Source: an uncultured Pseudomonadota bacterium
Lineage (GTDB): Bacteria; Pseudomonadota; Gammaproteobacteria; Burkholderiales; SG8-39
NCBI GenBank assembly: GCA_903921325.1
Contig: CAIXPL010000019.1
Location: 124,001-188,000 of the forward strand
Length of the DNA stretch: 64,000 nucleotides
Direction of reading: 5' to 3'
The notes beneath the pieces were generated by a model. The model saw only the letters and a list, made by a program, of their open reading frames with translations. It did no database searches and was not told the origin of the DNA. The position numbers were made by a program, and so were the translations under genes. Position 1 is the first letter of the stretch. The number at the start of each line of letters is the position of its first letter. Positions 56,127 through 57,514 of the stretch are shown here, piece after piece.

Positions 56127-56180
56127 TTAACTACCCACTGCGGGGTCGAATTCGACCCACCCAACGTCACCGCGCTTCAT
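56127..56180 (-). pseudogene. mazF/pemK toxin 5' fragment
   Basis: From ATG 56180 the minus strand encodes MKRGDVGWVEFDPAVGS and then TAA. This is the conserved start of MazF/PemK endoribonucleases (KRGDVWWVxFDPxxGSE). Similarity stops at the Ser, where IRKTRP and the rest of the toxin should follow, so the gene is broken after 17 codons. A short overlapping frame on the same strand (56167-56301) could be the end of the antitoxin gene but was not recognised. The fragment contains the palindrome GGGTCGAATTCGACCC. Confidence 0.7.
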
Positions 56181-56337
56181 TGGCCATGAAACCTGCTGCA
56201 CCGGGTTTGCTGCGCTTGCCAACAATCGCCCGCTCCGCCGCTTTATGTCGTGCCTTGAAGCTGGCGATTGCGGGAAATAGATTGTCGTGCTGGCGAGCCA
56301 CGCGGTGCTCTCCGTCGGCTCCTGCAAACGTGCTGGG

Positions 56338-56568
56338 TCAGGCCGCCAGTTCAATTTCCTGGCGTTTGTTACCTGTTTCGACGATCAGCCGACCATGATC
56401 TTCCGAAAGTTGCTGGTTCGCATTCAAGAGTTCGATGCCATAAATCGATCCGTCGGCCGCCAAGTCGATGTTGACCTCGTCGCTGATCTTCAGGGTCGTC
56501 ACGGTTCCGCTCTTTTCGTGGAAGCGCATATAGGCGATGTTGGCCTTCGGGTCGTAGCTCAGTTTCAT
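56338..56568 (-). CDS. DUF2283 family protein
   Basis: 76 residues from ATG 56568, preceded by GAAGGA. The sequence MKLSYDPKANIAYMRFHEKS and VNIDLAADGSIYGIELLNAN is the DUF2283 signature (short beta-rich protein, function unknown). It is the last gene of a three-gene minus-strand operon, 22 bp after the DUF4258 gene. DUF2283 and DUF4258 genes are often adjacent in bacteria, which hints at a partner pair, possibly toxin-antitoxin-like; that is inference. Confidence 0.85.
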   Translation of the reverse strand: MKLSYDPKANIAYMRFHEKSGTVTTLKISDEVNIDLAADGSIYGIELLNANQQLSEDHGRLIVETGNKRQEIELAA

Positions 56569-56590
56569 GGCCTGTCCTTCAAACAATGCT

Positions 56591-56839
56591 TCAGAAATAT
56601 TTGACGATTACCGTGATCACCAGCCAGCCGTCTTCTTCGACAGCATACGCTTCGATTTGCTTGGTGGCATAGCGTTTGCCGTTCCATTCACCACCGAACG
56701 GAGCGTTGTGCCTGAAACCCGAGCGGCCGAACTTGGCTGGAAATCGTTCGCCGTTCTCAACGGCAGCAATGACTTCGATTTCGGTCGCTCCCCTTTCTGC
56801 AAGACGCGCCAACGCGTGGGGATGCAGGCGAACGCTCAT
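56591..56839 (-). CDS. DUF4258 family protein
   Basis: 82 residues from ATG 56839 (an earlier start would overlap avd by 34 bp). The sequence MSVRLHPHALARLAERGATE and the later TKQIEAYAVEEDGWLVITVI match DUF4258, a small alpha/beta fold reminiscent of RelE-like or BrnT-like toxins. R12 and R16 with H6 and H8 are candidate functional residues. The ATG overlaps the avd stop (ATGA), so avd and this gene are coupled. No activity is known. Confidence 0.83.
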   Translation of the reverse strand: MSVRLHPHALARLAERGATEIEVIAAVENGERFPAKFGRSGFRHNAPFGGEWNGKRYATKQIEAYAVEEDGWLVITVIVKYF

Positions 56840-57132
56840 GCCGGCGCGGCCCGGTTCGCCTTCAGCCATCCACCCACCAGGCGGCCGGTTTCATCGATGG
56901 CACGGGCAGCGAACTCATAACGGGTCAGATCGAGATAACGCAGGTCCATCGCCAACCGGAACAAAAAGCGCAGCTTCTCCAATCGCAGGTTGCATGTCAG
57001 CAGATGCGATGCTGGATTCTTTGAGTAGGTCGCCTCGATCAAGCTCTCCTGCACGTCCAGCGCCAGGGTTTGCATACGATCACCGAGCAGGAACTTCTGG
57101 CTCCTTGGGAATTTTTCCACGGCGGGGATCAA
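56836..57132 (-). CDS. Avd-like four-helix-bundle protein, probably 5'-truncated
   Basis: The 98 residues (L)IPAVEKFPRSQKFLLGD, TLALDVQESLIEATYS, NLRLEKLRFLFRLAMDLRYL and YEFAARAIDETGRLVGGWLK match the bAvd family, the accessory protein of diversity-generating retroelements, where Avd binds the reverse transcriptase. No reverse transcriptase, template repeat or variable repeat is in the window. Homology starts at Leu-Ile-Pro; the first 15 or so family residues are missing and the 47-bp repeat abuts the break. A TTG start at 57132 sits 7 bp after AGGAGG (57140-57145), so the shortened gene could still be translated. Confidence 0.72.
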   Translation of the reverse strand: MIPAVEKFPRSQKFLLGDRMQTLALDVQESLIEATYSKNPASHLLTCNLRLEKLRFLFRLAMDLRYLDLTRYEFAARAIDETGRLVGGWLKANRAAPA

Positions 57133-57133
57133 C

Positions 57134-57180
57134 GGTAATCCTCCTCTCATACCGAGGGAATGAGAAGTTGAAGTTTCTCC
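57134..57180. repeat. 47-bp direct repeat, copy B
   Basis: 40 of 47 bases match copy A at 57203-57249, with a 22-bp spacer. On the plus strand it runs from GGTAATCCTCCTCTCATACC to GAGAAGTTGAAGTTTCTCC. The minus strand supplies AGGAGG for the avd-like gene. The pair may be terminal fragments of an insertion sequence, given the orfA remnant that follows copy A. Confidence 0.8.
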
Positions 57181-57202
57181 ACGGGCCATCAAACAGGTGT
57201 AT

Positions 57203-57249
57203 GGTAATCCTCCCCTTGAACCGTGGGGATGAGAAGTTGAATTTTCTCC
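57203..57249. repeat. 47-bp direct repeat, copy A
   Basis: Plus-strand sequence runs from GGTAATCCTCCCCTTGAACC to GAGAAGTTGAATTTTCTCC. It can pair with itself (CCCC/GGGG and GAGAA/TTCTC). It is followed by a purine-rich AGGGGGGAGG and the start of an IS3-type orfA remnant, as at the left end of an insertion sequence. Confidence 0.8.
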
Positions 57250-57266
57250 AAGGGGGGAGGTTCCAC

Positions 57267-57353
57267 ATGAGGACATCGAAGTTCAAGGGCAGTCGGATCA
57301 CGAACGCGCCCAAGCGCTTGAGACCGGCGCAGAGCCTTGACTGGGCCGTCTAG
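57267..57353 (+). pseudogene. IS3-type orfA transposase fragment
   Basis: Plus-strand ATG at 57267 opens MRTSKFKGSRITNAPKRLRP and stops after 28 codons. The SKF...ITNAxKR pattern resembles the start of IS3-family OrfA (MRxSKFxExQIxxALKxxEAG), and restoring one base near 57321 would continue it as KRLETG. AGGGGGGAGG lies 6 bp upstream. It appears to be a frameshifted remnant; the rest of the element is missing. Confidence 0.5.
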
Positions 57354-57439: not shown

Positions 57440-57475
57440 GTCGACGACTCTAATGGCATGTCGACGACTTTAATG
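57440..57475. repeat. 20-bp-period repeat GTCGACGACTYTAATG, two copies
   Basis: Copies at 57440-57455 and 57460-57475 share 15 of 16 bases at a period of 20. Closely spaced repeats of this sort are common at termini of IS21-like and similar elements. That assignment is a guess; only the repeat is seen. Confidence 0.6.
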
Positions 57476-57514
57476 TCACGGAACAACTAGTCCGCATACC
57501 TCCCTCGACACCAC

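What the first reader, a model, noticed from the sequence alone, without database searches (positions are those of the whole stretch)
56338..57132. Coupled avd-like / DUF4258 / DUF2283 operon without a reverse transcriptase
Three short genes overlap or lie within 22 bp on the minus strand: an Avd-like four-helix bundle, a DUF4258 protein (stop/start ATGA overlap) and a DUF2283 protein. Avd is known as a partner of the DGR reverse transcriptase; here it is tied to two domains of unknown function often found as a pair. It could be a standalone defence or toxin-antitoxin-like module, or a DGR satellite. Best candidate in this window for an undescribed system.
Basis: partly seen in the sequence, partly recalled or inferred. 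Interest (0 to 1): 0.75.

Follow-up and report, generated by a model that had tools for sequence, protein, structure and literature searches.

The report
Toxin-antitoxin pair inside dead DGR
The three small genes are what is left of a decayed mutation-making retroelement (DGR) with a toxin-antitoxin-like gene pair lodged between its helper gene and its now-deleted reverse transcriptase, and several intact DGRs elsewhere carry other toxin-antitoxin pairs at exactly that spot, which seems not to have been reported.

Summary
The genes are real, but 'without a reverse transcriptase' is not. Behind the DUF2283 gene lies a 44-codon stub of a DGR reverse transcriptase (56167-56301, minus), 80% identical over 35 residues to the RT start of an intact DGR in Candidatus Accumulibacter aalborgensis, whose avd is 90% identical. 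The window's avd has lost its first helix to two 52-nt repeats; RT catalytic domain, template repeat and target are gone. This is a DGR relic.

DUF4258-DUF2283 is a separate toxin-antitoxin-like pair: it occurs alone elsewhere, is under purifying selection, and the DUF4258 model best matches RelE/BrnT/YoeB/MqsR toxins. In the relic it sits between avd and RT.

Of 132 other avd-RT junctions, six hold recognisable genes, all toxin-antitoxin: HicAB, DUF2281-PemK, UPF0175-PIN relic, DUF4258-YgiT, DUF4160-DUF2442 and a PIN pair. Five of these DGRs keep an intact RT and template. All seven cases are co-directional with avd and RT; three different ones share one site in Avds about 86% identical. So toxin-antitoxin genes recurrently occupy the avd-RT junction of bacterial DGRs. 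Their function there (probably retention) is inferred.

The parts
56836..57132 (-). avd remnant: DGR accessory protein, lacking the first ~25-30 residues (first helix)
   Evidence: NCBIfam NF033474 1.3e-26, profile 14-104 only; 90% aa identity to the intact avd of L028, Ka 0.06 with saturated Ks
56591..56839 (-). DUF4258 protein, predicted RelE/ParE (BECR)-fold toxin; start ATG overlaps avd stop (ATGA)
   Evidence: Pfam 9.3e-5; 72% identity to a stand-alone pair in L025; AlphaFold2 pLDDT 96.6; best structural matches are RelE, colicin E5 RNase, BrnT, YoeB, ParE, MqsR, Z up to 7.2
56338..56568 (-). DUF2283 protein, presumed antitoxin of the DUF4258 protein (all-beta model)
   Evidence: Pfam 1.1e-12; pair conserved in L025 (63%) and Thermus plasmids; no PDB match
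56167..56301 (-). N-terminal stub of the DGR reverse transcriptase (GTG start, 44 codons), fused to unrelated sequence after ...GFMAN
   Evidence: 80% identity over 35 aa to the RT start in L028, 2e-13; RT profile positions 1-34, 2e-6
56127..56180 (-). start of a PemK/MazF-like gene (MKRGDVGWVEFDPAVGS*), relic joined to the RT stub
   Evidence: 58-bp DNA match at 84.5% to PemK/MazF genes on Azotobacter plasmids, 4e-7; reading by eye; the fragment alone has no Pfam hit
57134..57254 (.). two direct 52-nt repeats (57134-57185 and 57203-57254, 85% identical) replacing the avd 5' end; MITE-like
   Evidence: no other full copy in the genome, none in the other avd loci held
57267..57353 (+). short ORF MRTSKFKGSRITNAPKRLRPAQSLDWAV, possibly the start of an IS3-type OrfA (remnant)
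   Evidence: by eye only; no database support

Best explanation
The locus is a dead diversity-generating retroelement in a bacterium related to Candidatus Accumulibacter. While the DGR was intact, a two-gene toxin-antitoxin-like module (DUF4258 toxin, DUF2283 antitoxin) sat inside its operon exactly between avd and RT. Later the RT was deleted to a 44-codon stub and the avd start was destroyed by MITE-like repeats; the TA-like pair stayed intact. This is one case of a recurrent arrangement: in other bacterial DGRs the avd-RT junction carries other TA pairs, co-directional with and closely packed against avd and RT. Most likely mechanism: the DUF4258 protein is a RelE/ParE-type ribonuclease held in check by DUF2283, and the module is a retention device. 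A cell that loses the DGR operon also loses the short-lived antitoxin and is poisoned, so the stretch holding the TA resists deletion. Shown here: the DGR relic, the RT stub, the truncated avd, the independence of the pair, the recurrence at the junction. Supported by models and family knowledge: DUF4258 as toxin. Inferred: that the pair was already in place before the RT was lost, DUF2283 as its antitoxin, toxicity, retention.
For: DGR relic: intact relative L028 (target, avd, RT, TR) with 90% avd and 80% RT-stub identity. No DGR-type RT, TR or target is left: the only RT in the genome is a LINE-like ORF, the only FGE-type protein reads as EgtB, and the window has no TR or RT YxDD motif in place. 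TA pair: stand-alone copies in L025 and on Thermus plasmids, Ka 0.23-0.31 against Ks above 1.6, RelE/BrnT/YoeB/MqsR as top structural matches, DUF4258 listed among BECR toxins in PMC11980606. Recurrence: among 132 other avd-RT junctions, recognisable genes in the gap occur in six, all TA-type: L189 HicA 6.6e-6 + HicB 2.5e-8, L190 DUF2281 8.8e-5 + PemK 8e-11, L191 UPF0175 5.3e-11; L049 DUF4258 + YgiT finger 1e-10, L047 DUF4160 + DUF2442; L193 PIN_2 1.2e-13. RT with YxDD and TR present in L049, L189, L190, L191, L193. Same strand in 7 of 7; close packing, some with stop/start overlaps.
Against: No toxicity or neutralisation is shown. DUF2283 has no known antitoxin function and its model matches nothing; no paper in the library holds the word. 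The DUF4258 fold match is moderate: Z 7.2, below the 8 that the tool's note treats as safe, and Foldseek alone gave none. In the window and in L047 the RT was lost although the TA-like pair stayed, so the pair does not protect RT itself. TA frequency in flanking positions of DGRs was not surveyed, so enrichment at the junction over the flanks is unmeasured. Most compact bacterial DGRs (43 of 48 in the genome set) carry no TA at the junction.
Confidence: 0.62

Rival explanations
1. Plain hitchhiking: TA pairs are selfish, mobile and common, and survive wherever an insertion does no harm. The avd-RT junction of a dispensable element is such a place; neither DGR nor TA benefits.
For: TA pairs are widespread and mobile. 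The DGR here is dead. In L191 the TA itself is decaying: a PIN-like start is fused to RT (by eye).
Against: All recognisable gene-bearing junctions seen hold TA genes and none hold other genes. 7 of 7 are co-directional and closely packed. Five lie in DGRs with intact RT and TR. Three different modules sit at the same site in Avds 86-87% identical to that of L190.
Confidence: 0.25
2. Regulatory insert: the TA operon, by antitoxin autorepression and translational coupling, sets the level of RT relative to avd or ties DGR activity to stress.
For: Stop/start overlaps on both sides in L190 and at the avd side in the window, L047 and L189.
Against: Different, unrelated TA families at the same site; most DGRs of the same clade do without. 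No promoter or expression evidence.
Confidence: 0.08
3. One reading: Avd, DUF4258 and DUF2283 form one RT-free defence or TA-like module.
For: Tight spacing and ATGA overlap.
Against: Trio found only here. Avd truncated. RT stub present. Pair found alone elsewhere. No PADLOC hit.
Confidence: 0.03

Closest known systems
Diversity-generating retroelements (avd-RT-TR-VR cassettes with FGE/C-type-lectin targets), e.g. L028 in Ca. Accumulibacter aalborgensis
   Same: avd 90% identical; RT stub 80% identical over 35 residues and starting at the corresponding GTG; same gene order
   Different: RT catalytic domain, TR and target lost, avd start lost; extra gene pair between avd and RT
Type II toxin-antitoxin modules of the RelE/ParE (BECR) superfamily, DUF4258 branch (PMC11980606)
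   Same: DUF4258 family, predicted fold, bicistronic small-gene layout
   Different: The published table gives the order antitoxin-toxin and names MqsA fusions; here the partner is DUF2283 and the order toxin-antitoxin; no activity shown
DGR loci degraded by MITE-like tandem repeats in Thiohalocapsa PB-PSB1 (PMC10907252)
   Same: Tandem repeats replace parts of DGR components
   Different: That paper's text contains no mention of antitoxins; the repeats here match no IS end that could be found

Membership tests
Diversity-generating retroelement (functional) | Reverse transcriptase with YxDD motif | tested here: not met
   Only an N-terminal stub remains; no RT YxDD at the locus
Diversity-generating retroelement (functional) | Avd accessory protein | tested here: inconclusive
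   Present but without its first helix
Diversity-generating retroelement (functional) | Template repeat and variable repeat in a target gene | tested here: not met
   No TR/VR signature in the window; only FGE-type protein in the genome reads as EgtB
Diversity-generating retroelement (relic of) | Homology and gene order avd-RT to intact DGRs | tested here: met
   L028 and the other avd-RT junctions
Type II toxin-antitoxin system (DUF4258 branch) | Toxin of BECR/RelE-ParE fold | tested here: inconclusive
   Best matches are almost all RelE/ParE-type toxins, Z up to 7.2 over 66 residues
Type II toxin-antitoxin system (DUF4258 branch) | Two small adjacent genes conserved as a pair in unrelated contexts | tested here: met
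   L025 and Thermus plasmids
Type II toxin-antitoxin system (DUF4258 branch) | Toxicity neutralised by the partner protein | not testable with these tools
   Needs expression experiments
Known anti-phage defence system | Match to a PADLOC model | tested here: not met
   No hit for any of the three proteins

The most novel reading that the evidence does not exclude
The avd-RT junction of bacterial DGRs is a general docking site for exchangeable toxin-antitoxin modules that act as addiction devices, keeping a costly, occasionally useful mutagenic element in the genome; DUF4258-DUF2283 is an undescribed TA pair of this kind.
Probability: 0.35. Interest if true: 0.78.

Novelty: new variant of a known kind. 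Interest (0 to 1): 0.6.

Why it matters
DGRs are patchily spread and often decay, and how hosts keep them is an open question. A recurrent nested TA module would give a testable answer. It would also explain 'RT-free' avd operons as what is left when the RT goes and the addiction module stays. It adds DUF2283 as a candidate antitoxin for a DUF4258 toxin.

Tried and rejected
Standalone trio: rejected after order-wide searches found no second trio and an RT stub was found. Phage origin: the window proteins have no relatives in viral contigs, and none of the 61 viral avd-RT junctions carries an identified TA gene; their gaps mostly hold the TR; L187, with a 608-bp gap, stayed unexplained. Search of plasmids with the whole region gave only the PemK fragment. 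Identity of the 52-nt repeats: no full second copy in the genome, none in other avd loci, Rfam nothing credible. Foldseek alone gave no match for either model; the RelE-type matches came from the second aligner only. Sequence search of the PDB gave nothing. Literature: no paper in the library holds both DUF4258 and DUF2283 or DUF2283 at all; of 27 papers with DGR and toxin-antitoxin only PMC8867640 was opened, and its toxin-antitoxin mention concerns retrons; other DGR papers opened gave no TA at the junction. Subscription papers and supplements could not be read. One query (YgiT finger) had its first residues mistyped; the match starts behind them.

Full report
Observation. The three minus-strand genes are present at the stated coordinates. 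Avd matches NCBIfam DivGenRetAVD at 1.3e-26, DUF2283 matches Pfam at 1.1e-12, and DUF4258 at 9.3e-5, just under its cut-off. The Avd match begins only at profile position 14; aligned with intact relatives, about 25-30 N-terminal residues (the first helix) are missing. Directly upstream lie two 52-nt direct repeats, 85% identical. The reading frame runs on into them, so the 146-codon ORF that a gene finder would call is not a normal Avd.

The missing RT is not quite missing. An Avd search of 399 genomes of the order gave relatives 60-67% identical that are followed by full DGR reverse transcriptases. A scan of bacterial genomes gave an avd 90% identical in Candidatus Accumulibacter aalborgensis (L028). 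There a target of the FGE type, avd, RT and a template repeat form a complete DGR, and the RT starts inside the end of avd. The window carries, 36 bp behind the DUF2283 gene, the first 44 codons of the same RT (80% identity over 35 residues, 2e-13; RT profile 2e-6). After ...GFMAN it runs into a PemK/MazF-like gene start, itself a fragment. The genome has no other avd. Its only RT match is a LINE-like frame on a 6.7-kb contig, and its only FGE-type protein reads as EgtB. The window has no template repeat. The locus is therefore a DGR relic. Its decay is probably not old: avd against L028 has Ka 0.06 with Ks near saturation, though part of that is the L028 branch.

The pair is a separate module. 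The closest DUF4258 (72%) sits with a DUF2283 (63%) next to argininosuccinate synthase in another genome of the order, with no avd or RT in the 3.2 kb held around it. Thermus plasmids carry a more distant pair. Ka is 0.23 and 0.31 with Ks above 1.6, so both genes are kept as proteins. AlphaFold2 gives the DUF4258 protein a confident model (pLDDT 96.6). Re-aligned to Foldseek's candidates, its best matches are RelE1, colicin E5 RNase, RelE3, BrnT, PrpT, YoeB, ParE and MqsR, Z 6.0 to 7.2. That is a middling score, but the agreement of the list is telling, and a 2025 survey places DUF4258 among BECR-fold toxins and reports fusions with MqsA (PMC11980606). DUF2283 is all beta and matches nothing; its role as antitoxin is inferred from gene order.

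Recurrence. Measuring the gap between avd and RT in 132 other loci (68 genome, 61 viral, 3 plasmid) gave two normal layouts: compact junctions under 250 bp (43 of 68 genome loci) and 250-449 bp gaps, most of which hold the template repeat (55 of 61 viral loci). Six loci hold recognisable genes in the gap, and all are toxin-antitoxin genes: L189 HicA-HicB, L190 DUF2281-PemK, L191 UPF0175 with a PIN-like start fused to RT (the latter by eye), L049 DUF4258-YgiT finger, L047 DUF4160-DUF2442 (the RT of L047 is also only a stub), and L193, a finished Microcystis plasmid, with a 79-residue protein plus a PIN_2 fragment and an IS5. With the window that makes seven. All seven lie on the strand of avd and RT and most are packed tightly against both, with stop/start overlaps in L190, L047, L189 and the window; in L193 the IS5 separates the pair from the RT. 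L049, L189, L190, L191 and L193 have an RT with YxDD and a template repeat, so the TA genes are not merely colonisers of dead elements. L189 and L191 have Avds 86-87% identical to that of L190, yet the three carry different modules at the same site; L192, 80% identical, has none and an RT stub.

Mechanism. The simplest account is that TA pairs are retained in, and help retain, the DGR operon. Placing the pair between avd and RT means most deletions of the operon would remove the antitoxin source. In the window and in L047 the RT is gone and the TA-like pair is intact, as expected if the pair can hold itself but not its neighbour. Neutral hitchhiking is the main rival and cannot be excluded, because other gaps of the same genomes were not surveyed. 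A regulatory role is possible but unsupported.

Known or new. DGR decay through transposons and MITE-like repeats is described (PMC10907252), and truncated DGR RTs too (PMC3521204). DUF4258 as a toxin family is described. No paper found here describes TA modules at the avd-RT junction, but only open papers could be searched and few of the candidates were opened. I rate this a new variant of known kinds.

Noticed in passing
G000:C23:1574-5419 (locus L002): The genome's only RVT_1 match lies in a 1814-aa open frame on a 6.7-kb contig that resembles a eukaryotic LINE-type retrotransposon; probably a contaminant contig.
   Followed up: partly
window 57134-57254: Two 52-nt direct repeats with a stem-like core (GAGAAGTTGAA..TTCTCC) exactly where avd is cut; no full second copy elsewhere in the genome.
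   Followed up: partly
window 57440-57478: Two near-identical 19-nt tandem repeats (GTCGACGACTYTAATGKCA) upstream of rpoH, possibly an IS end.
   Followed up: no
L191:3562-4629: The RT frame appears to begin with the start of a PIN-type toxin (AETAIINASPLI..), as if a UPF0175-PIN pair had collapsed onto the RT.
   Followed up: partly
L040, L043, L047, L050, L057, L058, L192: RT cut short or broken after about 27 to 118 residues in several other DGRs of these clades; early RT truncation seems common.
   Followed up: partly
L227 (Ideonella dechloratans plasmid, NZ_CP088082.1): Two avd-RT pairs in tandem beside phage tail genes and an integrase.
   Followed up: no
L187 (viral contig) avd-RT gap: 608-bp gap with no recognised gene; the template repeat, if any, was not recognised by the simple signature used.
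   Followed up: partly
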